From Porodaedalea pini (lineage: Eukaryota; Basidiomycota; Agaricomycetes; Hymenochaetales; Hymenochaetaceae), in assembly GCA_002794775.1 (NCBI GenBank), contig NBAY01000002.1, forward strand, positions 496,001 through 560,000: a stretch of DNA of 64,000 nucleotides. The letters run 5' to 3'. Position 1 is the stretch's first letter. Each line of letters starts with the position of its first letter. Position numbers and translations under genes: made by a program. Below are positions 5,266-34,822 of this stretch, piece by piece. The notes beneath the pieces were generated by a model, which was not told the origin of the DNA, did not search any database, and worked only from the letters and a program-made list of their open reading frames with translations.

Positions 5266-5343
5266 CACTTCAGGCTACCCCTCAAAGTAGACCTATTAGG
5301 CTAATTCTTACACACAAATAATTAGCCTATTAGGGGTCAGGTT

Positions 5344-5576
5344 TGGGCGTACCCAATTTTCTGGGTGCGCCCAGTGGGTGTGAGCTGGGTATACCCAATT
5401 GTTAATACCGTGGGAAAATTGGGCCTACCCAGCTTCTAGGGCACTCCCAACTGGGCCTCCCCAATGTTCCTAGGTGGGCATGCCCGATTTTCTGGGTGTG
5501 CCCAGGTGGGCATGCCCTGGGTGTACCCAGATATGTCACTGTCACTGACTGTCTGGGGGACTTTTGGGCACACCCA
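5344..5576 (+). repeat. Cluster of 12-bp palindromes TGGGN4CCCA near the left tip
   Basis: Within 233 bp about ten copies occur, for example TGGGCGTACCCA (5344), TGGGTGCGCCCA, TGGGTATACCCA, TGGGCCTACCCA, TGGGTGTGCCCA, TGGGTGTACCCA and TGGGCACACCCA (5565). Spacing is irregular and the inner four bases vary, while the TGGG and CCCA halves are kept. This pattern fits binding sites for a dimeric protein. The mirror cluster is at 34512-34744. Confidence 0.8.
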
Positions 5577-6840
5577 ACTTCAAATTTTCTGATAAAATAT
5601 AGACCTTTATAGATGTTGTAGTTTATAATTTTTGATTATGAAAATCAGTTTTTTTTCCTGCTGTTTAATCTAACTGTATGAGTTGACCTTTGATGTGAAC
5701 TAGGCTTGGGCCAACAGTAGTTACAATTAGCTGGATCTGGACATATATTTAGTAAAGCTCTAAGTCTTAAGTCTCTCTGCTTCTACCTCTGTTTCTTTAT
5801 GTAGCAGTACTTTATAGCCACACTTGAAGACTGGCTGTTCAACCTGAACCTTAAATCAAACTCTTCATAAGCTACATACAAACTGAATCATGATTTGGTT
5901 CAGGGTTCAAATCTTTTACCTAATGAAAATGTTGATATGATTTGATAGTTTTGTAAGATTTCTTCATATTGTAGAGAAGGCCATTGTAGTGTTTGTAGAC
6001 ACTTGTATGTATCAGTAGTGGAAGGCACCTAGGTAGTGCCAACACTTGAGCCCACAAGACAGATGGGACAAAACAATATTTGTTGCTGTCAGAGAGAGTG
6101 GAAATCATACAGGAAAATTGTCTACTCACCTTTGTTACTGTCAGAGAGACTGAGGCAACAAAGGCATTGGAAAGGGTTCAAATAGAAAAGATTAAATAAT
6201 ATAAACTGTACAGTACCAGTCTGACAGGAATCCATTGAGAATTACTCTCAGAATACATAAATCTTTGGCATATGCATGCCGAAGGATCACTCTACTTGGT
6301 GTGAGTATGTATGAGCTTCAGCTGGGTTGGGGAGTGAAGGGAATATGAAAAGGACATGAATAGAATGTAACGTGCCATGCTCTGAAGGTCTGGAGGCTAT
6401 GCTGCCACCGAGTTTCGGGCTTGGACTCGGTGTGGTCGCAGTACGGCTGTATGTTGGCCTTCCAGAGTTTGTGCATCTCAGAATATTGGCAGCTTGGTAC
6501 CTCAGAGTCATGACACAGTGTCCTGACAGTCAGTGTCATGTCAGACATGGTGAGAATGCTCTGGTGGGCTTACAATTCCTGCAGATATCTGTATTGCCAA
6601 GTCTTCATATCTTGAATCCTGCTCTATTTAGGTTGTTCCTCTTGATATACTAAGTCACTGAAGTCTAGATATCATTCTAACTGGCTAAGGTCTGAAATGC
6701 TAAGAGATGGAAGGTCAAAATAATAGAAATATGAGAGAATAAACAGAATGCATGTAATGTCATTATAACAAAATTAAGATGGGCAATTCATGTTACTAAG
6801 ACACTGAGATATATCTATAGATATCACACAAAGTTAGGCA

Positions 6841-7655
6841 TACCCAAGTGGGTACTCCCGACTACTTGGGAATGCCCAACTGGGTACTCCCAAACTACTT
6901 GGGAACGCCCAACTGGTACTCCCAAACTACTTGGGAACGCCCAACTGGGTACTCCCAAACTACTTGGGAACGCCCAACTGGGTACTCCCAAAGAGAATTG
7001 GGAATGCCCAACTAGGTACTCCCAAACTACTTGGGAACGCCCAACTGGGTACTCCCAAACTACTTGGAACGCCCAACTGGGTGCTCCCAAAGAGAATTGG
7101 GAATGCCCAACTGGGTACTCCCAAACTACTTGGGAATGCCCAACTGGGTACTCCCAAACTACTTGGGAACGCCCAACTGGGTGCTCCCAAAGAGAATTGG
7201 GAATGCCCAACTGGGTACTCCCAAACTACTTGGGAATGCCCAACTGGGTGCTCCAAAGAGAATTGGGAATGCCCAACTGGGTACTCCCAAACTACTTGGG
7301 AACGCCCAACTGGGTACTCCCAAAGAGAATTGGGAATGCCCAACTGGGTACTCCCAAAGAGAATTGGGAATGCCCAACTGGGTACTCCCAAACTACTTGG
7401 GAATGCCAACTGGGTACTCCCAAAGAGAATTGGAATGCCCAACTGGGTACTCCCAAAGAGAATTGGGAATGCCCAACTGGGTACTCCCAAAGAGAATTGG
7501 GAATGCCCAACTGGGTACTCCCAAACTATTTGGGAATGCCCAACTGGGTACTCCCAAACTACTTGGGAACGCCCAACTGGGTACTCCCAAACTACTTGGG
7601 AACACCCAACTGGGTACTCCCAAAGAGAATTGGGGACACCCAACTGGGTACTCCT
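6841..7655 (+). repeat. 33-34 bp minisatellite of the left arm
   Basis: About 25 units alternate between two forms that differ only at the end, ACTACTT (33 bp) or AGAGAATT (34 bp). Each unit contains two TGGGN4CCCA palindromes: TGGGAAYGCCCA and TGGGTACTCCCA. Because the unit is 33-34 bp, open frames run through in several phases; these are not genes. Single-base losses occur in a few units. Confidence 0.9.
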
Positions 7656-7807
7656 AAGAGAGATGAGTATACTAGACATTCCTAGCTGAAGCCCAAAGAA
7701 TACCAGATATTTTTAAAAAAGCAAAACATGTAAACTCAGATACTTTGTAAATGGCTGTAATATATCAGCAAAACAAATAAATCTAAAAGACAAGATACCA
7801 GAAAGAG

Positions 7808-8125
7808 GAACTTGTGCTCAGAGCAATGAGGAGAACAAGAGCAGTGTGGGTAAAATTCCCTAATGAACTAACTTAACACTGAGTGTAAGAAATAAACTGA
7901 AAGCCAAGAATGAATGAATATGCATTCAGTGTGATGAAGAAGACAAGAGCACAGTGAGAGTGGAGTACTCAATGAACTAACTTAAATTCTGAGCATAAGA
8001 AATCAAACTGAAAGCAAACATGCTGAACCTATGTCTGATGCAATGAAGAGAACAAGAGCACAGCGAGGGCAGACTGCCCAGTGACCTATCTTAATATCTG
8101 AGCGGAAGGACTCAATCATTTTTAA
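7808..8125 (+). repeat. About 105-bp subterminal repeats, outer left cluster (3 units)
   Basis: Each unit carries a core like GATGAAGARAACAAGAGCAC, then GTGAGGGT, an ACTACCCAATGA-like part and TCTGAGCRTAAGAA. Related units recur at 9395-9715, and inverted at 30225-30432 and 32015-32330, always on the side facing the element centre from each arm. Confidence 0.75.
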
Positions 8126-8175
8126 GGCCATAAAGAGTGGGCTTGAAGACAACTTTCAGAAGGAGATATTCGAGC

Positions 8176-8586
8176 TCACGGATCAACTGTTGCACAAGCC
8201 ACAAGAATGGAAAGGTGCTCTAGGAATAGCAAGCTTGTACTCCCTGCGTGGCTACTTCCACACTGATAATAATCATAGAATCGCGGGTCCGCACAAGATA
8301 CATCAATCTTAATGTGCATCTCCTTATGACCGTCGCGGCTGAGCAAGTAATTCATCAGTCTCACGCAGAGGCATACCGCTTTGGACTGGACTTCCCAGAG
8401 CCTACTAGCGACCACGAGAGCAAGGTCCCATTCTGGCTTAGGTTGCGTGAAGGTAAAAAAGTCTCGCTTTGAAATCTGCAGGCCTTGAACACACAATCCG
8501 TCTAGGACCGAGCCAGTGGCCCTCCGAAACCAACCTTCCACATTTCCGCAGGAAGATGGAAACACTTTTCGTGCTTTCCCATTCAT
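8176..8586 (-). other. 136-codon open frame inside the left arm
   Basis: The same 136-residue frame occurs unchanged in the right arm (31538-31948, plus). No domain, signal peptide or TM segment is evident. The arms are almost identical throughout, so conservation of the frame is not independent evidence of function. It may be chance, or an exon of a short arm-encoded transcript. Confidence 0.3.
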
Positions 8587-9127
8587 TTAAGCAGCTCGGG
8601 ACGATAGCATGCTTATTTGTATCTATTTATAAGAATAAGTATATTTTGTAAGCTGTCGGAACGGATTGCCAAAAGCAAAATTTCGGTTTCCCATGTATTA
8701 ACTGCAGAAGCAGTTGCTATCTAGATTAGAAAATGCGCAAGAATTAGGAATTACTTAGCTATCTTGCCCGTCGTCGGACGAGTTCGTTGCCAACAGTCTA
8801 TCCTCTTCACGGAAACCAAGCTCGTTCTAATATAATGGGCAGAATCACGCTACCGTCAGTTGTTATTGGCTCGGGGTATTACCTCAGTTATTATCCTCGT
8901 CCGGACTTGCCATCCGCGTCGCCGCCGCGATCTTTGCTGTCTGATTCACCGAGCTCTTCGACCGCAGACCCTCACGCGGCGGGCTCGAGCAGCAGGAAGG
9001 TGCGCGGTTGGGGGTGGCTTGTCCACCGAAGGGGTCGGGTACGCTTGTGACAGGTGAGTATGCGGTGCCATTTTGTTTGTGTTCGTCTCGCCCATTCCCT
9101 CCCGTCCACAACCGACTCGCGATCTCA

Positions 9128-9390
9128 TTCTCTGTCCCGCGCGCAGCCAACAAGACACAATCCGGTCGATCATTGGTTTCGTCTTCGCGACTTCGCTCTC
9201 GGTCCCTCCTCCCCTTTCACGCTGTTCCTTTCGATTCGGACTGTTTGTTGTTCCCTCCAGCATGTTTGTTTTCCATTCACAGTATGCTAGGGTGCTATGC
9301 ATTTCCTTGTACCGTCATTCGTCGCGTTCAACCTATGCCACTCTAAGTCCTGTTCAATAATATATTCAAGTCAGTGTATATCCTCTGTGT
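9128..9390. repeat. Inner, diverged continuation of the left arm
   Basis: Beyond 9127 the sequence still matches the inverse of the right side (about 30433-30997) but only in patches, e.g. GATCATTGGT, CCCTTTCGATTCGG and AAGCCGGATG. The step from near identity to loose similarity is abrupt. Confidence 0.6.
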
Positions 9391-9394
9391 TTAA

Positions 9395-9715
9395 GCCGGA
9401 TGGACTGCGCCTTATGCGATGAAGAAAACAAGAGCACGGTGAGGGTAAAATACTCAATGATCCCATTTGAAATCTGAGCATAACGAAGGATCTTCTAACA
9501 AGAATGAATTAAGAATTGGCGCGATGAAGAAACAGGAGCACAGCGAGGGTACAACCCGATGACCTATCCTAGTATCTGAGCGTAAGAAATAGACTTAACA
9601 ACAAAACATTAGAGAGAAGGAATCTGCGCTCAGCGCGATGAAGAGAACAAGAGCACGGTGAGGGTAGACTACCCAAAGATCTATCTTTATATCTGAGCGT
9701 AACAACGAACCTCAG
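9395..9715 (+). repeat. About 105-bp subterminal repeats, inner left cluster (3 units)
   Basis: Three further units of the family at 7808-8125, with cores GCGATGAAGA, AAGAGCAC and TCTGAGCGTAA. They abut the 3' end of the minus-strand cargo gene. Confidence 0.75.
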
Positions 9716-10447: not shown

Positions 10448-10860
10448 TGTTAGAACCTGAACTTTCACCTTTTCCTTTATTTTCCCTTTTACCATTTCCT
10501 TTATTATATTCGTCCTTTTCATTATATTTACCCATCTTACACAATCATTCCCACACTACCTTCATTTGTTCCATTCCCACTCGTTATGTAATGTTAGGTA
10601 ATATAGTCTCACGGTCGTCGCTATATAAGGTCTCAGGAATCGCATGAACTCCTTGTTCTGCTTTTCCTCTTACCTCCGCGACAACCTAGGTGAGACTTGT
10701 CCCCCTTGTATTAGTTTAGACTTGTATTAATCCTCTTACCTCCGCGACGACCTAGCCTGAGTAAGCGTGTCCCGAGTCTACGCTCGAGTATAGCACGTCC
10801 CAGACGACAGTCAGCCGAGGCCTGCCCAGTCCGAGTCGTCTCCCGGGCTCCCGCCTAACA
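10448..10860 (+). repeat. 5' LTR
   Basis: 413 bp, starting TGTTAGAACC and ending GCCTAACA. Holds a TATA box and the inferred transcript start. By eye it matches the 3' LTR at 16277-16689 throughout. Confidence 0.95.
10622..10665 (+). promoter_or_regulatory. LTR promoter: TATA box and likely transcript start
   Basis: TATATAAG lies at 10622. Thirty-three bases downstream, at 10655-10665, is GTTCTGCTTTT, the exact complement of the 11 bases just inside the LTR (10862-10872). In self-primed Tf1-type elements the first 11 nt of the RNA pair with the primer site, so the start is expected at 10655, a normal distance from TATA. Confidence 0.75.
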
Positions 10861-10861
10861 T

Positions 10862-10872
10862 AAAAGCAGAAC
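10862..10872 (+). promoter_or_regulatory. Primer-binding site, self-priming type
   Basis: AAAAGCAGAAC starts two bases after the LTR end. It does not begin with the TGG expected for tRNA priming, but it is perfectly complementary to 10655-10665 in the same LTR. Known precedent: Tf1 of fission yeast. Confidence 0.75.
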
Positions 10873-11570
10873 CTCACCCAGGCTCATCCCCAGCGTAAGT
10901 CGTCGCTGTCGACTCGCCTTCACTCGGTCTAGAGGAGCGCTCCCCTCGACGGACTTGACGTGTAAACCCCCTAAACGACAACCCTCAACCCTGCCCGGAC
11001 GTTTTCGGACGTTCGTGTATTACGTAAATATATCAACCGACATTTCCCAACCCTGGCTCTACGAATTAGCCTCTGGTGGAGCACGCACCTAACGTGGACG
11101 TGGGTAACAAGACGAGTCCAAACTTCGATGACAATCTCGTTTGTAATCTCACTCGGATCCTACCGCCTCGTCATCAACTTCGCTGACGAACCCGCTCAAC
11201 GTTGGCGTAACCCCGGATCGAACGCGCAACCGATCCCTGTCCCTCCGCCAACGTCAAGATAGATCTCACCGACGAACAGCAACGGGCCCTTCCTGCTTCA
11301 GCCCGTTGGGATCCAGACCGACCAGGCTACGTCGCGACCAATAATAGCGGCGTCACTCACGACATCTGGTGGAGTGAAATCCGGCGCAGCTGGTATTCAT
11401 CAGACGAACGAGGGAGGAGAGCAAGGTGGCCCCCAGCCGCTCCGTCGTCACCTGCACCGTCAACGTCTACGGTCAACCTACCACCGACCCCAGGTCCTTA
11501 CCGCGAAACCAACAGAGACCCCTCACCGCCGACTCCTCCAGAACCTTCGACACCCGCACCCGAACCCGCG

Positions 11571-12392
11571 ATGTCAGCAGAAGGTTTCAGCCAACAGCAA
11601 ATGGCGCAGATCGCGGCCATCGTTGCGAATGCCTTCGCCCATCAGGCGAACAATGCCCCAGCACCGGTCGTGGCCGCTAACCCCCCGACCCCCAACATAG
11701 ATGTCGCCCGGCCACGAGAATTCACTGGTGGCGACGATTACCTCGACTTCAGATGTGAAGTCCTCCTTTTTGTATCCGCAAATCCAAGTCGATACCCTAC
11801 GTCAGAGAGTAAGATTTATGTAGCTCTCTCCTACCTGAAGGGTGGTAATGCGGCAACGTGGGCACAGAACTACGTCGAGGAGTCGACAACGTCGGGGATC
11901 GTCACCTTCACCGACAGCTGGGAAAGATTCCAGGAACAACTCGACGCCTCGTTCGACGACCCGAATCGCAAGGAGAAAGCGCTGAAGGATTTCCGAGATA
12001 AGGTTCAGAAGGACCTAACCGCGGATGAGTTCTTCCAGAAGTTCGACGTGATAATTAAGCGCGCCGAGTTGAAAGACGACAGCGTCATCTGCGATCGCCT
12101 CAAGCGGGCGATGAACATCGAGGTGGTCCGTGGAGTGCTAAGGTCGACGCCAGTCCCAACGAAATACGAGGATTGGAAGAACAAGGCGATTGAAATAGAC
12201 CGCGGCGAACAGCAGATTCGCGCTATCCAACGAGGACGCGCCTTTCTTCCCCCTCCTCGCCTACCACAACAAGCGCCCCCAGCTCGCCGTCAGGTAGCGG
12301 CCCCTCACGTCGACAGACGCGATGCGACCGGCGTCACCTTTGGAGGCGCTGGTCAACCGATGGACGTCTCGATGAACGAGGCACAACGATGA
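11571..12392 (+). CDS. Chromovirus gag (capsid part)
   Basis: 273 residues with the features of a retrotransposon gag capsid: RPREFTGGDD, then alpha-helical blocks containing YLKGGNAATW and FDDPNRKEKA, and a DEFFQKFD segment. The gag family forms the particle that packages the RNA. The ATG at 11571 is the first in this frame, but the frame may be entered further upstream. The frame is stopped by TGA at 12390-12392, directly before the zinc knuckle. Confidence 0.8.
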   Translation: MSAEGFSQQQMAQIAAIVANAFAHQANNAPAPVVAANPPTPNIDVARPREFTGGDDYLDFRCEVLLFVSANPSRYPTSESKIYVALSYLKGGNAATWAQNYVEESTTSGIVTFTDSWERFQEQLDASFDDPNRKEKALKDFRDKVQKDLTADEFFQKFDVIIKRAELKDDSVICDRLKRAMNIEVVRGVLRSTPVPTKYEDWKNKAIEIDRGEQQIRAIQRGRAFLPPPRLPQQAPPARRQVAAPHVDRRDATGVTFGGAGQPMDVSMNEAQR

Positions 12393-12650
12393 CGTGCGTG
12401 CTGGATCTGTGGGGGGCTGGGCCACTTTAAAGACAAGTGCCCACAGGCGAAACCGATCATCCAGCGCATGCTGGAACTGATGGCGCCAGGCGAACGTCGT
12501 GTCCTCGCCGACAAGCTCGGAGCGATGAAGGAGTCGGCCTTCGAGGAAGTCGTAGACACTCGGAGGTCGACGGTGGAGGACTATGTGGAGGAAGAAGGCG
12601 ATAACGAAGAGGTCGTCGACTCGCAGGGTTTTGCGAATGGTCAGGCGTAG
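12393..12650 (+). pseudogene. Gag C-terminal zinc knuckle, separated by an in-frame TGA
   Basis: In the same frame as gag, right behind its TGA, comes CWICGGLGHFKDKC, a complete CCHC knuckle, then an acidic tail ending at TAG 12648. Without the TGA gag would be about 359 residues. The TGA lies in a CGATGACGT context, so a CGA to TGA change (C to T at CpG) would create it. Stop-codon readthrough is the alternative. Confidence 0.65.
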
Positions 12651-15600
12651 CCATCGGGGCGACTGACCGAGAAGAACAAGAGACTTCGAATCCGGATCCG
12701 CTAAAATATAACCAACCGTTTGTACAATATGTAGATGCGAACAACGTCGATGGTTTTCCCGATTACGAAGTCTCCACCGGTGTGAACAAGAATGAAGAGT
12801 GCGAACAACTGTTCATGAGAGGAACTGGCGGACGCCAGCTGGACCTTCTCCTGACCGTCGAGCATGAAATAGCTGGTGAGGCGAGAGAGGTAGATGCGCA
12901 TGCCCTTGTGGATTCGGGATGCACGGGATCCTGCATCGACGTCAGGTTCGTCGAGAGGTACGGGTTGGAAACGAAACGCTACATTCGACCCCTCGCGGTG
13001 CTCAACGCCGATGGCACGCACAATGAGGCCGGATTGATCGAGGAGTACGTTGATGTCAAACTCATGATCGGCCGTCATCAGGAGAAGATCGTCCTCGCAG
13101 TAACGTCCCTAGCGTCATCGAACATCTTCCTGGGGTACGACTGGCTTCGACGTCACAATCCGGAGGTCGACTGGAAAACGGGCTCGATCGAATTCACCCG
13201 CTGTCCAGAAGAATGTGCAATCGAGAGGGAGCCGGTGGAGGACCTAGGCGAGGTGAAGAAGGTGGTGGAGCAGATGAGGAGGGTGAGTGAGATGCGAATG
13301 GACAAGACGTCCTGGCCCACATACCTCAACGACTACGCCGACGTTTTCAGCAAAAAAGGTTTCGAGAAGCTGCCGGAACACCGACCCTGGGACCATGTCA
13401 TTGACTTGAAGCCCGACTTCAAACCGAGCGACTGTAAGATCTACCCGCTCACGCCGACTGAGCAGCAGTCACTCAAGGACTTCCTTGATGAGAACCTGAA
13501 GTCGGGTCGCATTCGACAGTCGATATCGCCCATGGCATCGCCCTTCTTCTTCATTAAGAAGGCCGACAAATCGCTACGCCCCATCCAGGATTACCGTAAG
13601 CTCAATGACGGTACGATCAAGAACAAGTATCCCCTCCCTCTCATTGACGAACTCGTCGACAAGGTCAAGAAAGCGAAATACATCACTAAGCTTGACCTTC
13701 GCTGGGGGTACTACAATATCCGGATCCGCGAGGGTGACGAATGGAAAGCAGCGTTTCGCACGAACATGGGCCTCTTCGAACCGACGGTCATGTTTTTTGG
13801 CCTTTGCAACGCGCCGGCCACGTTCCAGGCCTTTGTCAACCACATCTTTAAGGACCTAATCTATGCGAACTTGATCATCGTATACCTCGACAACATCCTG
13901 ATCCTCTCGGAAACCATTGAGGAGCATATCGACACATCGAGGCGCGTACTCCAGATCCTCCGAGAGAATGGCCTGTACCTGAAGCCGGAGAAGTGCGAGT
14001 TTGACGCCAAGGTCGTCAAATACCTCGGCCACATCATCGGCAATGGAGAGATCAGGGCTGACCCGGCAAAGACGGAGGCGATTGCGAACTGGCCAGTCCC
14101 ACGGAACCTCAAGGAGCTGCAACAGTTCCTCGGCATGGGAAACTGGCTGAGACGGTTTATTAAGGACTACAGCAAGGTGGTCCGACCGTTGACGTCGTTA
14201 ACGGGCAAGAAGGACTGGGTATGGGAGACCGAACAGCAGGAAGCGTTCGAGGAGCTGAGACGACGTCTCTGCTCACCTCCAGTCCTAGCCATTGCCAATG
14301 ACGAGGGCCCTTTCCGCGTAGAAGCGGACTCGTCGAACTTTGCGCTCGGTGGTGTGTTGTTGCAGAAGCAGGAAGGGAAGTGGAGGGTGATCGCCTACAG
14401 GTCAGAGGCACTTGAACCGGCGGAACGAAACTACGAGATCTACGACAAGGAGATGCTCGCGATCGTTTCGGCGCTCAAGGAGTGGCGGCAATACCTCCTT
14501 GGCGCTCGCCACAAAATTGAAATCTGGTCCGACCACGCCAACCTCACCTACTTCAGGTCAGCGCAGAAGCTGAGCTATCGTCAAGCTCGCTGGCGAACCG
14601 AACTCGAGGAATTCGACTTCCACCTCGAACACAAGTCGGGGAAGACAATGGGCAAGGCCGACTTGCTGTCACGCAAGGCGGGCTATGATCAGGGCAAGGA
14701 TGACAATGACGGCGTCGTGTTCATCAAGGAGAAATGGCTGAACCGTGGGGTGGTAAGGACGTCGCGTGATGAAATGTTGGAACGAGTGGGTGAGGCGCAG
14801 AGAGCGCAAGACGAGTCGGAGAGGCCGACGAATATGGTGAAGGTCGACGGGTTGTGGCGGATGAAAGGCAAGGTGTACGTGCCGTCGACGATGAAGGAAG
14901 CGGTATTGCGGGAGTACCACGACTCGACCCTGGCAGGACATCCTGGATCGTCGAAGACGGTCGAACTGGTACGTCGAGACTTCTGGTGGGCGTCAATGTT
15001 CTCCGATGTCCGAACATACGTCCGAGGATGCAACCGTTGCCAACGGACGAAAGCCTTAAGAACGTCGAGGTCGAGACCGCTTCATCCTAACGCGATCCCT
15101 GAAGGTCCCTGGGAGATCGTCACGGTCGACCTAATTGGAGAACTCCCGGACTCTAAGGGACACAATGCAATCTGCGTCTTTGTGGACAGATTCTCGAAAC
15201 AGATGCATGCCATCCCGACGACGACGAAACTGTCAGCAGAAGGCATGGCTCAGTTATACCGAGACCACGTCTTCCGCCTCCATGGCCTACCGAAGAAAAT
15301 CATCCACGACCGAGGCACACAGTTCGATGCGTCGATGATGAAGGAGCTATACAAACTCCTACACATCGAAGGCAACCCGTCAACGGCATACCACCCACAA
15401 ACGGACGGTCAGACGGAACGCGTCAATCAAGAGCTCGAACAGTACCTCCGGCTCTTCGTCGATCATCGGCAATCGGACTGGAAGGACTGGCTCCCCCTCG
15501 CAGAGTTCGCCTACAACAACCGCGAACATTCAGCGACAAGGATGTCACCCTTCTACGCAAACACCGGACGTCACCCTATGAGCTTCGACACCGTACGAAC

Positions 15601-16195: not shown

Positions 16196-16261
16196 CTCCG
16201 TCCGCTCTTCGTCGACACCGAGCCTGACGACCGCGATCATGGTTGGTCGGGACGCCCAACC

Positions 16262-16276
16262 TTGAAGGGGGGGTAA
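16262..16276 (+). promoter_or_regulatory. Polypurine tract
   Basis: TTGAAGGGGGGGTAA stands directly before the 3' LTR, as needed for second-strand priming. Confidence 0.7.
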
Positions 16277-16689
16277 TGTTAGAACCTGAACTTTCACCTT
16301 TTCCTTTATTTTCCCTTTTACCATTTCCTTTATTATATTCGTCCTTTTCATTATATTTACCCATCTTACACAATCATTCCCACACTACCTTCATTTGTTC
16401 CATTCCCACTCGTTATGTAATGTTAGGTAATATAGTCTCACGGTCGTCGCTATATAAGGTCTCAGGAATCGCATGAACTCCTTGTTCTGCTTTTCCTCTT
16501 ACCTCCGCGACAACCTAGGTGAGACTTGTCCCCCTTGTATTAGTTTAGACTTGTATTAATCCTCTTACCTCCGCGACGACCTAGCCTGAGTAAGCGTGTC
16601 CCGAGTCTACGCTCGAGTATAGCACGTCCCAGACGACAGTCAGCCGAGGCCTGCCCAGTCCGAGTCGTCTCCCGGGCTCCCGCCTAACA
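16277..16689 (+). repeat. 3' LTR
   Basis: 413 bp, matching the 5' LTR in length and, by eye, in sequence. Followed by TTAGT at 16690-16694. Confidence 0.95.
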
Positions 16690-23691: not shown

Positions 23692-26328
23692 ATGGATTGG
23701 GGTTCGGAAGTTACTTGGGAACCGGAGAGAGAGATTCTCATCAAACAGACTCATGATCTCGGTATGCTTTGTTTCTACTGAAACTCGTACGTCTTACACT
23801 CACTCAATAATAATGTGCAGTCCCAGGAATCAAAGTTCAGCCTTATGATGCACGAGTCGGCGCGGAGATGGGCTATCTGAAGCAGGTAATAACGAGCCCG
23901 AATGCAGACTGGGTTCCGCAGTACCCTCTAGTCGAGGAGCCGGGCATTCTTAAGCGTGCGGATGGTCTGTGGGGCGGCCATGAATATACTCGATGGCCTC
24001 AGATATTTTCGAAAAACTCCATCCATCACGCCTGCATCCCTTTTGAGAAGAAGCCCGTTCGTGACGTGCCTACTTCCGACTTCATCCAGTGGTATGACCC
24101 AGAGCGCAAAAATGACTTCGCGGACACTGGCGTCAGGGATACCCGTACTGGGAGCGAGATCGGACAACTTCGTCTTTCTGTGCTGGAGCCTCTCGGAGCT
24201 CGTTTTTCATTGGTCGCAGCGAAAGTAAACGAAATCGGACCAAAATACGGCAATGACGAGTCACGGAAGGTCTTCAAGCGCTGCGTCGAAACTGGAAAAT
24301 CTGCGCTTGACCGGCTCGGCGTCGAGAAAGCCAGTTGGCGTACTACGCTTTTCACCGTGCGTGACGTTCAGCGGGCCATTCTCGAACTTGAGGGTTTGTA
24401 TACCTACTTGAAGACCATCGGACCTCGCATCAATTCCACCGAGTCGTTCAAGACAGAAGTTCTTCCTGTGCGCGGCACATTCACTACCGAGTCTCCCGTC
24501 GCTGAACACTTGTATCGTGTCGGCATTCCTGTATGGCAAATTCGGCACTACAAGATGCTATCCGATCAAATTAAAGTATTCAGCGTTGTCGAGTGCACGC
24601 CGTGGTCGACTAGCGTCGACAAAAACTTTGTATACTACAATGATCCGGACGATGGCAAGGTCAAGGTCTTAAACGTCGGTTTCAACCTGCAGTCGATACC
24701 GAAACTATTGGACATGGCTTCGAATCAGCTCATGAGTGACCGCAACATGTCTGAACTCCTCGAACAAATGTACGGCTTCGAGAAGTACAGGCCCGGAGCG
24801 TCGACCATCACGTCTTCATCGTCATCTGCTACTACGTCTCCCCCTATCACTCCTTCCTCGTCATCCACTGCCTCTCATGGACCTGTACTTCCGCCTGCAT
24901 CCTCTTCGACTTCTACCCAAAGGCAGAAGAGAGCTGGATTAAAACGAAAGCCGGAGAAGGAAGCCGTATCGTCACGAAACTCGACGAAGGAGTCGAGCGT
25001 CAACTACTCTACCTTTCTGTATGTCCCAGATGGTATTGATGGACGGCCCGATCTCCCTGCTTACTGTCGCGAGGTCCACGATGGCTTGAAGAGGCTTGGC
25101 ACCATACCTGAAAACCGATCCGTCGCTGCACTGTATCCCCTTCCGCCACCCTTCCTTCTCATCCACTCTAGTCCAGAGAGATCAGCGGACTTGTATCTAA
25201 ACTACATTAGGATACATCCCATCTTGATCGACATGCTCACGAACGGCGGCCTCTTCAACAAGCGCGTCTGGCGCAAATTACGCGACTGGAGAACTATTTT
25301 GCATGGCGACTTCAGGAAATCGACGCCGCTTCCTCCAAATACCGCCTCTCCATTTGTCGAGAGCATTTATAACTACTTGCCCTCTAGATCTAAGGCTGGT
25401 ATTCCTTCAGATCGGCCATCGGGTTCGCACAAACGTGATGAGCCGGACGGAATCAACTTGCCTCCCGCGAAACGGCAGCGTATTCTGAATAACGCGACAA
25501 TCAAGGTCACTTTTGGCGCCGAGCGTCATCTGGAGCCGTTTGACCGTACAGAACATCAGCAGTGGTGCGGCAAAACTGTCTCCGCCGACAGGATAAATCG
25601 CGACAAGGTCCTTCGGATGGAAGTACAATGGGAACTTTCCGAGATACTGTTCCGGTACGAGTTTTACGCCCTCGATCAAGCGATTCTGCCGCGCGATCAG
25701 ATGACAGTAGAAGAACATCGCCAACGAAACGGCCTTTTAAGCCGGGTATACTTGGGCGTCACCGATGGTTCATCTACCGTCGTCCCCGATCTGTCGAATC
25801 CTATCAAGGAGTACTGGGGAGAAAGGTTGCACAGCGATTCCGTCGACGCCTTCCGCCAGGTATTGAAGGGATGGCCAAACTGCCCCGAGAGACTGAGGCT
25901 GGAGACAGACGTAGATCCGAGAGACTTCAGTGTGATGATTGATTTCTACATGCAGACTTTCGTGCGAGTTTTCTGTCGTATACCATCTATGCATTGCAAT
26001 ACCCCGGTCTCGCTAATGTAATTAATTCAAAGCTAATATAATGCCTTGCGGCGAGCACTAATTACATTGAACTGTTGAAGTATCTTGGAATATTCTTTCT
26101 CTGATTGACCGTTACCCGCTTGCAGATTCATTGGCCCGATCGCCTACCGAGTTCTGGAATGCCCGCGCTTCCCGCTGCCGTACGTTCTCCTTTCTCTTGA
26201 TTGCACGACCTTACTGAAACTTACATTTAATATATATCGTGATCTCGTTTGATGGAGCCTTCATAGGGCAGAAATTCGGACCGACGCATCCGAGCTCAGA
26301 TATGAAGGCCTCGCAATATATCCTTTAG
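23692..26328 (+). CDS. Cargo gene 2: unknown protein of about 780 aa
   Basis: Exons 23692-23761, 23821-25977, 26126-26179 and 26267-26328 join in phase to 780 codons plus a stop; the 148-bp second intron is the least certain part. The N-terminal 320 residues look folded (LWGGHEYTRWP, then VRDVQRAILELEGL, then GIPVWQIRHY). A serine/threonine-rich linker of about 60 residues follows, then a second folded half with ERNRS-type helices and a basic patch (PPAKRQRIL). No catalytic motif, TM segment or signal peptide is visible. I do not recognise the family. It runs in the same direction as the transposase downstream (177 bp gap), so it could be an accessory protein of the element or unrelated cargo. 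Confidence 0.65.
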
Positions 26329-26505
26329 GTGAAAACGTGTCCAATGTTATACAAGCGTGAAGTAAAGTGTCTAAAATGCGTTAGTCATCTTTGATTCCGA
26401 CACTCTGCAACGTCACGTATTCCGTAAGTCGTCGTCCAGCGAGTTGTGCTGCTTCATGGCTCCCGACTGAGTTTTCTTCTCGTCATATTGTAGGTCGAGA
26501 TCGCA

Positions 26506-29500
26506 ATGCTCTTCTCATCAAAGCAAAGACAACAAGCGTACAATCGTCAGCAGCCAGCGCACGACCCAGGTTTGATTACTGGCCCTCTCGCGGCCGACTT
26601 CTTCGCCAGCTCTTCACCCCGAAGGGTAAAAGCCCGCCCACTATTATTTCTGTCGGATGGAAATACACTGATTCAAAACCCTCACCCTTACGGTTCTGGT
26701 GATACTCAAACGAGGCCTCTTACACCCGCATTCAAGGCATATGAATCATGCGACAGTTATACTGCGCACACGTTCGACAATCTCCGGCCTTCATCCTTTC
26801 GACAACACACCCAGGCGGAACGAACACCTTCAGGGCGGAAGAAGACGAGACAATGGGAGAGGTGGAGAAACGAAGTCATACCACAATTGCAGCAGCCGTT
26901 TATGGAGGTGTTGCGCCGCTCGCATTCCTTGAGGTACCCAGTTCCTTCCTTGCCTAAAACACCTTGCACGTGCGGCGCACGCCCTTCGAGTTTGGAAATA
27001 TTGTGTCTGTATTTTGATCGTACGTGTTCGCTGCAGCGTTTGTGCTCATTACTAACCAATCTTTTAGGTTTGGAGACTTTGGAACTTGACGCCTGTCATT
27101 GCCAGTCGGCACCTGTCCAGCTTCTTAATATCGGTCTATTCCCTTGCTCCCCATGCTTCCCGACACTCGCAGTCGACCTGAATCTCCTAGATTTTACCTT
27201 AGAACTTTTCCTTCATATTCCACCGAACCGGACTGCCATCAGCTCAACTATTAAGGCCTTTCTCTACGCTCGCGGCTACGCATTTGATGGGGAGGTGCGT
27301 TTTGAACAGCAAGAGCAGGCCTCTAACTCACTAAATGACTGGTCAGGACTCGTTGAGACGGCGCTTTTCAAGCGCATTGCAGTGGTTCGGTGTGCTCCGA
27401 GATGAAACCCAAGCGCAATTAAATCGAGAACTAGAAGTAGCGTGCGCTGAGCAGAGCAACGAAACTGTCTCAAGTCCACCTCCGAGCCCGTCTTCGTCTG
27501 TTACTGAGATACTCACTCCGAGTTCACCGTGCCCGAGTCGAAATATGTGTTCGAATCTCGTCCATGAGTTACACGAGGATGTATCTGAGCAGAGCGAGTA
27601 TTCTATTGAATCATTATTCGATATAAGGCTTACACTCATAGACAGAAAGTTCAGGACATTCCGCCGACGACGTATATGCTTCGCGGTACTTGCAAGACTG
27701 CTGTCCCGCCTGCTTCGGGGCAAAGTACACGATCCAAACGCTCTGTAAGTTAGCTTCAATACGTTACACATACTTCGTTAATCTGTTGCATAGAATCGAC
27801 ATACTTGTATGCCTGGACGCTTGCTTTCAACAGAAGCGTGGCCAAGGAGGTCGTGATCCTCGACTAATGCATGCCGACACTGTATTAATACCAGAGGCCG
27901 AGGTTCATGCTATGGAAGAGCGCGTTAATTCAGTGCGAGGGCCTCCGTCTTCGGCGAGTGCTCCAGTACAGCCTTCAGAAAGTCCCGTAAGCGCCGCTCA
28001 GTGGAAGATGGTCTCGACGATGCTATCGTGCCTGGCATGCAGATTCCGGAGTCTGTGCTTGACGGATGCGGCGCATCATTCAAAGCGGCGGATGACAAAC
28101 GACAAAAGGCTTCAACAACATTCTTCGCTGACACGGGACTCATGGCTATGCTCTGTCGCCACGATCAGGTGCTGTGGCTCGCCAACATGACATCAGCGGG
28201 GGAGAAGCAGTACTACCCTCTGGCCCTCATTGCGAAGCTTCTGCAGCACTTGTCGAAGAATGTTAGAGTCGGCGTTCTTTATGACATTGGATGTCAGTTA
28301 CACCGGAGCATAGTCAAATGGAATTTTTTCCCCGATGATTCGGACCGACTTGTTTTCGCTCTCTCGGTTCTGCATGCATTCGGACATCAGTGGACTTGCC
28401 AACTTGTTTACCATCCACGTAAATGCTCCGGGTTCGGACAAACGGACGGCGAAGGCTGCGAGCGCTTTTGGAGTTCAATAAAACATCTCATACCTTCAAT
28501 GCGTGTTAGTGGAGTACGTCTCGCCAATTTTGACCATCCTATTCAGTTTTAATCCTTCACAAACAGTTTCATTCGCGGATATATACTATCGATTCTCAAG
28601 TTCATCACCTGCGCAATGCTAATTCATACAAACTCGGAAGCTGGGTTGAGCGGCACTATTGGAGAACCAAACAACGGCTTTTCGATGCTCAGCGAACCCT
28701 TCAGCGATGCGGATTTACGGAAGAAGAAATGACCGAGCAATGGCATATGCAGATCGCCGAGCAAACAAAGCCTTTACCTCGTCCGTTTCTTTCTCAAGTT
28801 TTCCTTCCTTCCTTCCTTCCTTCCTTCCTTCCTTATGCGTGTTTTTAATTCAGGACAATCAAAGACGGCGGCACAAAATGTTGTAGAAGAAGTTGCAGCA
28901 CTGCAGACTCGTCTAGAGACCATCAAATCATTCATTTCCACTCTCGACAGTGCAGCCATCGATCCGACTTCCACTATCGATTTTTCGGAATGTGAGGAGC
29001 AAGCGCGTCGAGCTATTTGTACGCAAGCTCGTCTTGAAGCTGAAATTACTCAAAAGCGTCGAAAGCTTGGCATCCCCGAGACCCAGAAACTCCGGGCACT
29101 GGAGTACAGTTCCTTCATCAGTGATCGCATGAACACTCGTGCACTCAAGGTTCGGTTGCGCTCTAAACTAACAGCGCGCAGGTTTGAGCTCCAGAACATT
29201 GAACGCCCCTACAAATCACATACGTCGGAGAGCAATGGTATATTTACATCCTATTCTTATGCAACTACATTTGACATACTCCAATCAGAACGAAAAAAAG
29301 TCGACCATATTGAATCTCAACTCCATCACCGAGATCCCGGTATCACCCAACTTGCGCAAAAGTATAACAAGCTCTGTCAACACATGCGCGTCCTCCAGTC
29401 CAAGGGACAGTCCCCTGAAGGTGCCATATGCCCCGACGAAATCCCGACGAAGGGCCTCTTCAGCTTGGACGTTGATAGTACAATCTGGAGTGACCTTGGT

Positions 29501-30196
29501 CTTTATGATGATAGTGACGAAGACATTCCGCTCTGGCTGGGTGACGAAAATGTTCGAGAGGGAGTTCGTGCTATGCTGGCCATTCATCGTTGCAAGGAAG
29601 AGTTAGCTCGTATTGAAAAAGAGCGCTGTGCTATGCAAGAATGGTTCTCTCGCAAATGGGCTTCGGTTACCGCTGCACTCAGCGTAGCTCGTGGGTTTCT
29701 CATTCCTTCCGGTCTTTAATTTATGACTGAGATATATCTACCAGCTACTGATTCGGGCGTACATTACATGCACACCATACGTCGACTACACCTGCTGCGA
29801 CTATATTGCAAGTGGAAGAGCAGTCTCGATGCCCTCTTAATTGAACTCCCTTCAAGTATACCTAGCTGGGGTCCGCATCATACGGAAGTTCGCGAGTTTC
29901 TCCTCCTTCAGCAACGTATGTTAGGGAAAGTCAACACATTGTCTTCACCTGATCTTCGTCCCTTCTCTCCTGTCCTTTACTTCGATTTGGATGATGTAGA
30001 TGCAGACGATGACTGCGATGAACTCAAGGCTCAAGACGGCGATGTCCTCGAAGTCATGGGGGCCTTGGAAGCCCTGCATGAGTTGGATGGTGTTCTCGAC
30101 AGTTCAGATGCACCTTTTGATAATAAGTATGTTGCATCGCATGATTCATCATTTCCCCCATCCCCTCGAAAGAAAGCCCGCATTACAAACGAATAG
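26506..30196 (+). CDS. KDZ (Kyakuja-Dileera-Zisupton) transposase
   Basis: Eight exons join in phase: 26506-27019, 27068-27294, 27347-27580, 27642-27986, 28043-28513, 28567-28780, 28854-29690 and 29745-30196, giving 1097 codons. The N-terminal part has the CxC-type cysteine region (CTCGARPS, CHCQSAP, GLFPCSPCFPTLAVD). The RNase H-like core shows LDACF (Asp near 384), CRHDQVLW, YDIGCQ (near 521), YHPRKC and DGEGCERFWSS (Glu near 577). The C-terminal part is helical, with the LFSLDVD and WLGDENVREGVRAML blocks seen across fungal KDZ proteins, and ends with a basic tail. KDZ enzymes cut and move DNA elements. No stop or frameshift remains once introns are removed, so the copy looks functional. 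The ATG at 26506 follows a possible splice acceptor, so an upstream exon is possible. An optional intron near 27752-27794 would keep the frame. Confidence 0.88.
28797..28836 (+). repeat. (TTCC)n microsatellite in a transposase intron
   Basis: About nine TTCC units lie inside the intron 28781-28853. They do not disturb its GT and AG ends. Confidence 0.9.
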
Positions 30197-30224: not shown

Positions 30225-30432
30225 ATTTTGTCTCTCATACGCTCAGATACTAAGATAGGTCATCGGGTATTCTACCCTCGCTGTGCTCTTATTTCTTCAT
30301 CGCGTCAATCCTGTATTCATCTTTGTTCGAAGGTCTTTCTTACGCTCAGATTATAAGTGAGATCATTGAGAGTTTTACCCTCACTGTGCTCTTGATTTCT
30401 TCATCGCGTCAGTTGCAGTTCATCCGGCTTGC
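30225..30432 (-). repeat. About 105-bp subterminal repeats, inner right cluster (2 units)
   Basis: Inverted copies of the 9395-9715 family, ending in TTCATCGCGTCA. They start directly behind the transposase stop codon. Confidence 0.75.
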
Positions 30433-30997
30433 GCACAAAGCATTTACTGACATAAATACACTATTTTAAAGGACTTCCAGTGGAAGGGGCAAAACAAAGC
30501 ATCACTCAGTACAGATGACTGGAAGCCTACGACTACTCCGACACCCGGTCAGTCACTTCTCAACAAGGGACGTGTCTTTATTTACCTTTCGTATACAAGA
30601 AATTTTTAAATACGGGCTACAACGTTGCCTTTTCTTGGGTTTACAGGCTTTCGCTGGTCACTGACGTTCTGCATTCAAAGCCGTTCGATCTGTTGCCCCC
30701 TTGCCGGAGATTCTGGGAGAAGTATTCAAAGCCATACTCCGGTGCGATCTTGTATGCACCGCGCTCTCAGTGATCTCAACGTCCTCTACCATCTTTACGG
30801 TCCCCACACCTCTGTTATCAACAGTCACAATCACAACATGGCGTACTACAAAAAAAAGCAACTTGATGGAGGGAACAGCCCGCACTCCGAATCGAAAGGG
30901 AACAGTGTGAAAAGGAGAGATCAGGAGTAAAGCTGCGAAGACGCGACCAATGATTAGTTGGATTGCGTCCTTGCTGGCTGCGAACGGGTCCGGGAGC
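30433..30997. repeat. Inner, diverged continuation of the right arm
   Basis: Patchy inverse similarity to 9128-9390, with extra unmatched sequence between 30480 and 30690. No gene is seen. Confidence 0.55.
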
Positions 30998-31537
30998 GAG
31001 ATCGCGAGTCGGCTGTGGACGGGAGGGAATGGGCGAGACGAACACAAACAAAATGGCACCGCATACTCACCTGTCACAAGCGTACCCGACCCCTTCGGTG
31101 GACAAGCCACCCCCAACCGCGCACCTTCCTGCTGCTCGAGCCCGCCGCGTGAGGGTCTGCGGTCGAAGAGCTTGGTGAATCAGACAGCAAAGATCGCGGC
31201 GGCGACGCGGATGGCAAGTCCGGACGAGGATAATAACTGAGGTAATACCCCGAGCCAATAACAACTGACGGTAGCGTGATTCTGCCCATTATATTAGAAC
31301 GAGCTTGGTTTCCGTGAAGAGGATAGACTGTTGGCAACGAACTCGTCCGACGACGGGCAAGATAGCTAAGTAATTCCTAATTCTTGCGCATTTTCTAATC
31401 TAGATAGCAACTGCTTCTGCAGTTAATACATGGGAAACCGAAATTTTGCTTTTGGCAATCCGTTCCGACAGCTTACAAAATATACTTATTCTTATAAATA
31501 GATACAAATAAGCATGCTATCGTCCCGAGCTGCTTAA

Positions 31538-31948
31538 ATGAATGGGAAAGCACGAAAAGTGTTTCCATCTTCCTGCGGAAATGTGGAAGGTTGGTTTCGG
31601 AGGGCCACTGGCTCGGTCCTAGACGGATTGTGTGTTCAAGGCCTGCAGATTTCAAAGCGAGACTTTTTTACCTTCACGCAACCTAAGCCAGAATGGGACC
31701 TTGCTCTCGTGGTCGCTAGTAGGCTCTGGGAAGTCCAGTCCAAAGCGGTATGCCTCTGCGTGAGACTGATGAATTACTTGCTCAGCCGCGACGGTCATAA
31801 GGAGATGCACATTAAGATTGATGTATCTTGTGCGGACCCGCGATTCTATGATTATTATCAGTGTGGAAGTAGCCACGCAGGGAGTACAAGCTTGCTATTC
31901 CTAGAGCACCTTTCCATTCTTGTGGCTTGTGCAACAGTTGATCCGTGA
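31538..31948 (+). other. 136-codon open frame inside the right arm
   Basis: Mirror copy of the frame at 8176-8586 with the same translation. No recognisable domain. Confidence 0.3.
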
Positions 31949-32014
31949 GCTCGAATATCTCCTTCTGAAAGTTGTCTTCAAGCCCACTCTTTATGGCCTT
32001 AAAAATGATTGAGT

Positions 32015-32330
32015 CCTTCTGCTCAGATATTAAGATAGGTCACTGGGCAGTCTGCCCTCGCTGTGCTCTTGTTCTCTTCATTGCATCAGACATAGGTTCA
32101 GCATGTTTGCTTTCAGTTTGATTTCTTATGCTCAGAATTTAAGTTAGTTCATTGAGTACTCCACTCTCACTGTGCTCTTGTCTTCTTCATCACACTGAAT
32201 GCATATTCATTCATTCTTGGCTTTCAGTTTATTTCTTACACTCAGTGTTAAGTTAGTTCATTAGGGAATTTTACCCACACTGCTCTTGTTCTCCTCATTG
32301 CTCTGAGCACAAGTTCCTCTTTCTGGTATC
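32015..32330 (-). repeat. About 105-bp subterminal repeats, outer right cluster (3 units)
   Basis: Mirror of 7808-8125. Confidence 0.75.
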
Positions 32331-32468
32331 TTGTCTTTTAGATTTATTTGTTTTGCTGATATATTACAGCCATTTACAAAGTATCTGAGTTTACATGTTT
32401 TGCTTTTTTAAAAATATCTGGTATTCTTTTGGCTTCAGCTAGGAATGTCTAGTATACTCATCTCTCTT

Positions 32469-33246
32469 AGGAGTACCCAGTTGGGTGTCCCAATTCTCTT
32501 TGGGAGTACCCAGTTGGGTGTTCCCAAGTAGTTTGGGAGTACCCAGTTGGGCGTTCCCAAGTAGTTTGGGAGTACCCAGTTGGGCATTCCCAATTCTCTT
32601 TGGGAGTACCCAGTTGGGCGTTCCCAAGTAGTTTGGGAGTACCCAGTTGGGCATTCCCAAATAGTTTGGGAGTACCCAGTTGGGCATTCCCAATTCTCTT
32701 TGGGAGTACCCAGTTGGGCATTCCCAATTCTCTTTGGGAGTACCCAGTTGGGCATTCCCAATTCTCTTTGGGAGTACCCAGTTGGGCTTCCAATTTTTTG
32801 GGAGTACCCAGTTGGGCATTCCCAATTCTCTTTGGAGCACCCAGTTGGGCATTCCCAAGTAGTTTGGGAGTACCCAGTTGGGCATTCCCAATTCTCTTTG
32901 GGAGCACCCAGTTGGGCGTTCCCAAGTAGTTTGGGAGTACCCAGTTGGGCATTCCCAAGTAGTTTGGGAGTACCCAGTTGGGCATTCCCAATTCTCTTTG
33001 GGAGCACCCAGTTGGGCGTTCCCAAGTAGTTTGGGAGTACCCAGTTGGGCGTTCCAAGTAGTTTGGGAGTACCTAGTTGGGCATTCCCAATTCTCTTTGG
33101 GAGTACCCAGTTGGGCGTTCCCAAGTAGTTTGGGAGTACCCAGTTGGGCGTTCCAAGTAGTTTGGGAGTACCCAGTTGGGCGTTCCCAAGTAGTTTGGGA
33201 GTACCCAGTTGGGCATTCCCAAGTAGTCGGGAGTACCCACTTGGGT
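32469..33246 (-). repeat. 33-34 bp minisatellite of the right arm
   Basis: Same unit as at 6841-7655 in inverse orientation, about 23 units. The order of the two unit forms and the positions of truncated units differ from the left array, e.g. a degenerate unit near 32785 that is absent on the left. Confidence 0.9.
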
Positions 33247-34511
33247 ATGCCTAACTTTGTGTGATATCTATAGATATATCTCAGTGTCTTAGTAACATGA
33301 ATTGCCCATCTTAATTTTGTTATAATGACATTACATGCATTCTGTTTATTCTCTCATATTTCTATTATTTTGACCTTCCATCTCTTAGCATTTCAGACCT
33401 TAGCCAGTTAGAATGATATCTAGACTTCAGTGACTTAGTATATCAAGAGGAACAACCTAAATAGAGCAGGATTCAAGATATGAAGACTTGGCAATACAGA
33501 TATCTGCAGGAATTGTAAGCCCACCAGAGCATTCTCACCATGTCTGACATGACACTGACTGTCAGGACACTGTGTCATGACTCTGAGGTACCAAGCTGCC
33601 AATATTCTGAGATGCACAAACTCTGGAAGGCCAACATACAGCCGTACTGCGACCACACTGAGTCCAAGCCTGAAACTCGGTGGCAGCATAGCCTCCAGAC
33701 CTTCAGAGCATGGCACGTTACATTCTATTCATGTCCTTTTCATATTCCCTTCACTCCCCAACCCAGCTGAAGCTCATACATACTCACACCAAGTAGAGTG
33801 ATCCTTCGGCATGCATATGCCAAAGATTTATGTATTCTGAGAGTAATTCTCAATGGATTCCTGTCAGACTGGTACTGTACAGTTTATATTATTTAATCTT
33901 TTCTATTTGAACCCTTTCCAATGCCTTTGTTGCCTCAGTCTCTCTGACAGTAACAAAGGTGAGTAGACAATTTTCCTGTATGATTTCCACTCTCTCTGAC
34001 AGCAACAAATATTGTTTTGTCCCATCTGTCTTGTGGGCTCAAGTGTTGGCACTACCTAGGTGCCTTCCACTACTGATACATACAAGTGTCTACAAACACT
34101 ACAATGGCCTTCTCTACAATATGAAGAAATCTTACAAAACTATCAAATCATATCAACATTTTCATTAGGTAAAAGATTTGAACCCTGAACCAAATCATGA
34201 TTCAGTTTGTATGTAGCTTATGAAGAGTTTGATTTAAGGTTCAGGTTGAACAGCCAGTCTTCAAGTGTGGCTATAAAGTACTGCTACATAAAGAAACAGA
34301 GGTAGAAGCAGAGAGACTTAAGACTTAGAGCTTTACTAAATATATGTCCAGATCCAGCTAATTGTAACTACTGTTGGCCCAAGCCTAGTTCACATCAAAG
34401 GTCAACTCATACAGTTAGATTAAACAGCAGGAAAAAAAACTGATTTTCATAATCAAAAATTATAAACTACAACATCTATAAAGGTCTATATTTTATCAGA
34501 AAATTTGAAGT

Positions 34512-34744
34512 TGGGTGTGCCCAAAAGTCCCCCAGACAGTCAGTGACAGTGACATATCTGGGTACACCCAGGGCATGCCCACCTGGGCACACCCAGAAAA
34601 TCGGGCATGCCCACCTAGGAACATTGGGGAGGCCCAGTTGGGAGTGCCCTAGAAGCTGGGTAGGCCCAATTTTCCCACGGTATTAACAATTGGGTATACC
34701 CAGCTCACACCCACTGGGCGCACCCAGAAAATTGGGTACGCCCA
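34512..34744 (-). repeat. Cluster of TGGGN4CCCA palindromes near the right tip
   Basis: Exact mirror of 5344-5576, at the same distance from the tip. Confidence 0.8.
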
Positions 34745-34822
34745 AACCTGACCCCTAATAGGCTAATTATTTGTGTGTAAGAATTAGCCTAATAGGTCTA
34801 CTTTGAGGGGTAGCCTGAAGTG

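What the first reader, a model, noticed from the sequence alone, without database searches (positions are those of the whole stretch)
5266..34822. A 29.6-kb KDZ DNA transposon with 3.8-kb inverted arms, 8-bp duplication and cargo genes
Seen: matching inverted tips, TTGCTATC on both sides, near-identical arms, one KDZ transposase, two other genes, and flanking halves of one host gene that rejoin in frame. Known: KDZ/Zisupton elements make 8-bp duplications and have subterminal repeats, and KDZ transposases are abundant in mushrooms. Inference: this is a giant cargo-carrying KDZ element, comparable in scale to the Starships of ascomycetes but with a different enzyme and with arms several kb long. 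I know of no description of such an element, but could not search.
Basis: partly seen in the sequence, partly recalled or inferred. Interest (0 to 1): 0.93.

Follow-up and report, generated by a model that had tools for sequence, protein, structure and literature searches.

The report
Giant palindromic KDZ transposon family
The window holds a large jumping gene of a fungus with long mirror-image ends, and many relatives in the same genome are little more than two mirror-image halves carrying scraps of host genes, which suggests that the halves copy each other.

Summary
At 5266-34822 lies a KDZ-superfamily transposon with matching tips, TTGCTATC on both sides, ~4.0-kb inverted arms, and KDZ and CxC1 domains. 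Its 29.6 kb includes a nested Gypsy element of 6.24 kb. The two other genes recur in a second KDZ-bearing copy (dN/dS 0.19 and 0.43), so they are probably element genes, not passive cargo.

The family is the surprise. The exact tip occurs 91 times in the 53.3-Mb genome. Of 36 tip pairs examined, 26 have an exact 6-8-bp duplication; 8 of 13 tested have a match spanning the empty site elsewhere. Of 15 other copies read whole, 13 are KDZ-less palindromes: two arms of 6.2-7.8 kb, nearly identical, around a spacer of at least 305 bp. Some arms carry captured host fragments (HSP90 with introns; fatty-acid synthase) in mirror image. In 12 copies, copy-specific changes sit mostly in both arms with the same base, never with different bases.

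Best reading: a foldback-type KDZ family with homogenised arms, moved in trans; a new variant of known kinds. Assembly may hide small arm differences.

The parts
5258..5265 (.). left target-site duplication TTGCTATC
   Evidence: exact
34823..34830 (.). right target-site duplication TTGCTATC
   Evidence: exact
5266..34822 (.). whole KDZ element, 29,557 bp including the nested Gypsy
   Evidence: tips and duplication; 91 exact tips genome-wide
5266..9272 (+). left inverted arm; its outer ~390 bp is similar to KDZ-less copies (75.6% to C14a)
30854..34822 (-). right inverted arm
6843..7654 (.). 33-bp minisatellite with CCCAACTGGG decamers, proposed subterminal transposase-binding array (function inferred)
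32470..33245 (.). mirror copy of the minisatellite
9338..9587 (+). older inverted repeat inside the left arm, 81% to 30235-30483
30235..30483 (-). partner of 9338-9587
10448..16690 (+). nested Ty3/Gypsy LTR retrotransposon, LTRs 10448-10861 and 16277-16690 identical, 4-bp repeat TAGT at its edges
18241..19713 (-). 491-aa ORF with an acidic repeat region, no Pfam family; counterpart in C28 (dN/dS 0.43)
23814..26018 (+). 735-aa ORF, no Pfam family, counterpart in C28 (dN/dS 0.19, one in-frame stop there)
26494..30193 (+). KDZ transposase gene region, several exons (CxC1 in 26494-27402, KDZ in 27642-28549); exon borders and intactness not resolved

Best explanation
The window copy is a KDZ-bearing member of a foldback-type transposon family: ~22-23 kb without the nested Gypsy, with ~4-kb near-identical inverted arms, subterminal CCCAACTGGG arrays, a KDZ/CxC1 transposase gene and two companion genes. 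Its transposase, or that of a sister copy, most likely cuts at the shared CACTTCAGG tips and makes 7-8-bp duplications. It probably also moves, in trans, a larger set of KDZ-less relatives that are giant palindromes: two arms of 6-8 kb around a spacer of at least 305 bp. The arms of one copy are kept alike by copying one arm onto the other, most likely by gene conversion in place, so that a host fragment caught in one arm (HSP90, fatty-acid synthase) ends up in both. Shown: structure, copy number, duplications, empty sites, mirror cargo, arms changing together. Inferred: movement in trans, the role of the arrays, gene conversion as the copying process, capture first into one arm.
For: KDZ and CxC1 domains under constraint between window copy and C28 (dN/dS 0.09 in the KDZ core exon, 0.25-0.49 in five other KDZ ORF comparisons). 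Of 36 tip pairs: 15 exact 7-bp, 10 exact 8-bp and 1 exact 6-bp duplication. Spanning empty sites for 8 of 13 copies tested. KDZ-bearing and KDZ-less copies share the tip; the first decamer lies at 181 or 182 bp in 15 of 16 copies. Of 36 pairs only the window copy and C28 contain one of the KDZ hits listed. Arms: identical in a ~800-bp central piece in 13 of 13 copies, C1 at 0 of 808 within against 68 to the nearest other copy; copy-specific changes over the inner 4-5 kb of 12 copies: 344 both arms same base, 26 one arm, 0 both arms different base, or 132, 18 and 0 without C3. HSP90 piece with the same two boundaries in 6 of 10 copies tested, and in both arms in 20 elements. In C144 one-arm changes are 18 outer, 0 inner, both-arm changes 1 and 7 (p 1.2e-5).
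Against: Seven of 36 pairs have no recognisable duplication and 3 more have one mismatch. The centre-outward pattern is seen in C144 and C112 (p 0.003) but is reversed in C3 (p 0.04) and not significant in C35. In one of two pieces C35 is not closest to its own partner and 4 copies tie. Arm differences are kept best near unique flanks, or, in C3, next to a long unique spacer, as consensus collapse would predict. Beyond ~400 bp and the arrays the palindromes share little sequence with the KDZ-bearing copies. No transposition was observed.
Confidence: 0.65

Rival explanations
1. The palindrome is re-formed at each birth: a half element folds back and is copied at its centre during transposition or repair, so arms are identical at insertion and only diverge afterwards.
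For: Seven of 12 copies have no left-right mismatch outside the border; C25 has identical arms, a foreign spacer and no duplication, as a fresh fold-back join might; the Gypsy in C19 is in one arm only (LTRs 99.8%).
Against: One-arm and both-arm changes should then be spread evenly along the arm; in C144 and C112 they are not. Array lengths differ between arms in C29a and C116, which otherwise have no mismatch. The spacer is homologous in 12 of 13 copies aligned, so palindromes are inherited rather than made anew each time.
Confidence: 0.2
2. Arms differ more than the assembly shows; reads of the two arms were merged into one consensus, so near-perfect identity is partly an artefact.
For: In C144 and C112 differences survive mostly near the unique flanks, and in C3 throughout, where the spacer is ~4 kb. 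Read data were not available.
Against: C35 keeps differences deep in the arm with a 305-bp spacer. Mirror-image insertions of over 1 kb and the 8% divergence shared by both arms of C1 are too large to merge.
Confidence: 0.12
3. Two separate families: an ordinary KDZ element with long ends, and palindromes of another origin that happen to share tips and are not moved by KDZ.
For: Outside ~400 bp and the arrays, similarity between the window copy and palindromes is weak.
Against: Same 14-bp tip, same decamer at 181/182 bp, same kind of array, same duplication lengths.
Confidence: 0.08
4. A giant cargo element like a Starship.
For: Size, extra genes.
Against: No tyrosine-recombinase match among the 18 ORFs scanned, inverted arms present, size inflated by a Gypsy, extra genes conserved with C28.
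Confidence: 0.02

Closest known systems
KDZ elements of Cryptococcus, KDZ1-KDZ3 (PMC12810828, passages seen)
   Same: KDZ plus CxC1 transposase, 8-bp duplications (4-8 bp for KDZ2/3), ~9-11 kb
   Different: inverted repeats there are 139-241 bp, here ~4 kb, and 6-8 kb in KDZ-less copies; no palindromes mentioned in the passages seen
Kyakuja and Zisupton (PMC12730594, passages seen)
   Same: Kyakuja: 7-bp duplications and CA..TG ends; Zisupton: 8-bp duplications
   Different: the Kyakuja families described there have no terminal inverted repeats; subgroup of the window transposase not tested
Galileo (PMC3573991, passages seen)
   Same: foldback-like ends with internal tandem repeats, longest in transposase-less copies; chimeric copies without matching duplications; authors propose that long ends attract recombination and conversion
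   Different: P superfamily; inverted repeats up to ~1.26 kb; here about five to six times longer and nearly perfect
Tm1 of root-knot nematodes (PMC3169594, abstract seen) and Tetris (PMC4079207, listing only)
   Same: foldback-type composite ends; transposase-coding and transposase-less members (Tm1)
   Different: Tm1: Mutator-type transposase, 9-bp duplications
Pack-TIR and Pack-TYPE elements (PMC8277862, passages; PMC8903248, listing)
   Same: host gene fragments carried by DNA transposons
   Different: here the fragment lies inside both arms in mirror image
Starships of ascomycetes (recalled; listings only)
   Same: large fungal mobile element
   Different: KDZ transposase, inverted arms, no tyrosine-recombinase match in the ORFs scanned

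Membership tests
KDZ superfamily | KDZ transposase domain (PF18758) | tested here: met
   E 8.1e-54, 183 bits against a cut-off of 26.6
KDZ superfamily | associated CxC cysteine cluster | tested here: met
   CxC1 27.5 bits against a cut-off of 26.9
KDZ superfamily | 7-8-bp target duplications | tested here: met
   window copy 8 bp; 25 of 36 pairs exact 7 or 8 bp
KDZ superfamily | catalytic residues and intact gene | not tested
   exon borders not resolved
KDZ: Zisupton, Kyakuja or Dileera subgroup | place in the transposase tree | not tested
Foldback-type architecture | long inverted ends with internal tandem repeats and little or no middle DNA | tested here: met
   13 of 15 other copies read whole; arrays in the seven copies analysed with TRF
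Galileo / P superfamily | P-type transposase | tested here: not met
   the transposase is KDZ; no P-type match among 18 ORFs scanned
Pack-TIR (host fragment capture) | host gene fragment with a donor elsewhere in the genome | tested here: met
   HSP90, donor C3:770493; fatty-acid synthase, likely donor C9:1083512; not in the window copy itself for HSP90
Starship | tyrosine-recombinase captain | tested here: not met
   no such match in the 18 ORFs scanned of 50 listed

The most novel reading that the evidence does not exclude
A transposon family whose unit of inheritance is the half element: giant KDZ-mobilised palindromes in which any change or captured host gene that enters one arm is copied to the other, starting from the centre, so that long near-perfect palindromes, usually unstable, persist in 40 or more copies and spread mirror-image host gene pieces that could form double-stranded RNA.
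Probability: 0.35. Interest if true: 0.87.

Novelty: new variant of a known kind. Interest (0 to 1): 0.72.

Why it matters
Long near-perfect palindromes are generally held to be unstable (recalled), yet at least 40 homologous central spacers of this family are found in one genome. The copies are a natural experiment: many palindromes of different age, mostly with target duplications and some with empty sites, in which arm-to-arm copying, its direction and its rate can be measured. They also show host gene pieces multiplied in mirror image, which could feed small-RNA silencing of HSP90 or of fatty-acid synthesis; that is untested.

Tried and rejected
Passive-cargo reading of the two extra genes: rejected as the default because both recur in C28 at dN/dS 0.19 and 0.43. 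The 735-aa protein has 59 further matches at 47-56% identity (61 of 108 candidates scored); one of these, examined more closely, belongs to a high-copy repeat with a nearly fixed 3' end and ragged 5' ends (26 of 161 candidates scored), so what the protein does was not settled. Its fold without an alignment was too poor to search (mean pLDDT 35.4), and its only PDB sequence match had E 0.98.

Uniform centre-outward copying in all copies: not supported (C3 and C35). Host-gene rejoining in frame: left open. Rfam at gathering thresholds gave no match in the window. Homologues of the 735-aa protein in public proteins could not be searched.

Not in print, as far as searched: searches list no title or abstract start on palindromic or multi-kb-armed KDZ elements; the library holds open-licence papers only and the listings were capped. 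Iyer 2014 and the original Zisupton paper are recalled, not seen.
Full report
OBSERVATION. The window is G000:C2:496001-560000 of an unnamed 53.27-Mb genome in 201 contigs; that it is a basidiomycete is my inference from its KDZ/CxC content. The arms are 5266-9272 and 30854-34822, about 97% alike. Outside the minisatellite and the inner border there are 4 mismatches in the outer 3.84 kb. A Ty3/Gypsy element with identical 414-bp LTRs lies at 10448-16690, so the KDZ element itself is ~23.3 kb.

GENES. Of 50 ORFs of 120 aa or more in 4000-36500 I scanned 18. CxC1 and KDZ matches lie within 26494-28549; the Gypsy gives the other matches inside the element. The 735-aa and 491-aa ORFs have no Pfam match. 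A second KDZ-bearing copy, C28 (22,052 bp), shares 11.7 kb of interior at 82%. dN/dS between the two is 0.09 in the KDZ core exon, 0.25-0.49 in five other KDZ ORF comparisons, 0.19 in the 735-aa ORF and 0.43 in the 491-aa ORF. A sixth, mis-framed KDZ comparison in that call gave no estimate and was dropped. C28 has one in-frame stop in its 735-aa ORF. I do not claim that either copy is active.

FAMILY. The tip has 91 exact sites; with one mismatch allowed there are 131, against 25 for the reversed control pattern. I examined 36 convergent pairs: 34 with two exact tips, C20 with one and C1 with none; 22 exact tips were left unpaired and not examined. Spans run from 10.7 to 35.1 kb (the longest, C50out, encloses another copy and may not be a true pair), and 26 of 36 lie between 12.5 and 15.7 kb (coordinates). 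Duplications: 15 of 7 bp, 10 of 8 bp, 1 of 6 bp, 3 of 7 bp with one mismatch, 7 none. Thirteen of the 36 were tested for empty sites by joined flanks. Eight have a match across the join: C35 98%, C46 99%, C121 99%, C125 99% (two places), and in dispersed repeats C37 94%, C45 up to 96%, C49 97%, and C116 80%. None was seen for C1, C40, C42, C144 or the window copy, but only 40 of 215 and 40 of 182 candidates were scored. Of the 77 KDZ matches in the genome (75 candidates scored) only those at C2:524049 and C28:19200 lie inside one of the 36 pairs.

PALINDROMES. Fifteen other copies were read in full. C28 bears KDZ; C1 is a palindrome disrupted by a Gypsy; 13 are palindromes. One of these, C19, has a Gypsy in its left arm only (LTRs 99.8%), and its arm pieces are 97.9% (outer 1.6 kb, array included) and 99.96% (inner 4.7 kb) alike. 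In the other 12 the arms are 6.15-7.79 kb. Left-right mismatches up to the border: 0 in C14a, C14b, C25, C29a, C116, C121 and C125; 1 in C29b; 6 in C35; 13 in C3; 26 in C112; 39 in C144. C29a and C116 differ between arms by 160 and 224 bp at the array. Each of the 13 has a spacer of 305 bp or more. Of 13 spacers aligned (C1 included, C3 not) 12 are homologous and C25 has a foreign one; C3's is ~4 kb and was not examined. At least 40 homologous spacers exist in the genome (40 of 52 candidates scored).

ARMS CHANGE TOGETHER. In a central piece of ~800 bp the two arms are identical in 13 of 13 copies; 11 are strictly closer to their partner than to any other copy and 2 tie (C1: 0 within, 68 of 808 to the nearest other). 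In a second piece 8 of 13 are strictly closer, 4 tie and 1 (C35) is not. Over the inner 4-5 kb of 12 copies, copy-specific changes are 344 in both arms with the same base, 26 in one arm and 0 in both with different bases; 212 of the 344 are C3's, mostly a replaced inner bit. Without C3 it is 132, 18 and 0. Left-right differences are fewer than differences to the nearest other copy in 12 of 12. In wider searches arm pairs mostly score alike: equal bits in 13 of 17 pairs (40 of 263 candidates scored) and in 17 of 20 pairs. In C144 one-arm changes are 18 in the outer half and 0 in the inner half, both-arm changes 1 and 7 (p 1.2e-5). C112 leans the same way (p 0.003), C3 the other way (p 0.04, its innermost eighth left out), and C35 is not significant. 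Of 71 one-arm changes in these four copies 45 are G to A or C to T.

CARGO. The arms of C25 hold a fatty-acid synthase piece (ketoacyl-synthase C-terminal and ACPS domains) and an HSP90 piece. Matches of the fatty-acid synthase piece occur in both arms of 7 copies, with a likely donor at C9:1083512 (90% protein identity); those of HSP90 in both arms of 20 elements, with a likely donor at C3:770493 (94%). HSP90 was captured as genomic DNA: 1,086 host bases including introns, 95.3-95.8% identical, with the same two boundaries in C25, C121, C144, C3, C112 and C125; no match in C14a, C1, C28 or the window copy (left halves tested). The arms of C14a carry part of an unnamed gene that also occurs in single copies elsewhere.

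LINK BETWEEN THE TWO FORMS. KDZ-bearing and KDZ-less copies share the tip, the duplication lengths and the decamer CCCAACTGGG/CCCAGTTGGG. The first decamer lies at 181 or 182 bp in 15 of 16 copies (C1 at 105). Decamers are confined to the outer 2.6 kb in 14 of 16; C1 and C19, both with insertions, are the exceptions. There is none in the 34.3 kb of window outside the element. Otherwise the two forms share little sequence.

MECHANISM. The simplest account is movement by the KDZ transposase acting on the shared ends, with repeated copying between arms. Gene conversion in place fits C144 best. Re-formation at birth and assembly flattening remain as possible contributors, and the latter is the main caution. 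Galileo is the closest precedent: its longest inverted repeats are in transposase-less copies, it has chimeric copies without matching duplications, and its authors proposed that long ends attract recombination and conversion (PMC3573991, passages). The present arms are about five to six times longer, nearly perfect, and belong to another superfamily. Cryptococcus KDZ elements have 139-241-bp inverted repeats (PMC12810828, passages).

VERDICT. The find is a new variant of known kinds with an unusual architecture.

Noticed in passing
L082:4774-7077 (G000:C13) and 59 matches in G000: A 767-aa relative of the element's 735-aa protein sits in a high-copy repeat whose copies share a nearly fixed 3' end and have ragged 5' ends, as in non-LTR retrotransposons (inference); many copies have an unbroken frame.
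   Followed up: partly
G000:C65:52249-52548 and G000:C105:849-1148: The right flank of copy C65 and the left flank of copy C105 are the same 300 bp in opposite orientation (300 of 300): a second haplotype, a duplication or recombination between copies.
   Followed up: partly
G000:C25:136398-136904: The spacer of copy C25 is foreign and by eye resembles the repeat flanking C29a and C90; the copy has no target duplication although its arms are identical.
   Followed up: partly
L012:1497-2366: The 290-aa ORF in the arms of C14a has many unpaired relatives at about 57-78% elsewhere in the genome, several with a TAG inside the match: another repeated gene family.
   Followed up: no
window 41221-43614 and 55475-57820: Two long ORFs (797 and 781 aa) outside the element, not examined.
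   Followed up: no
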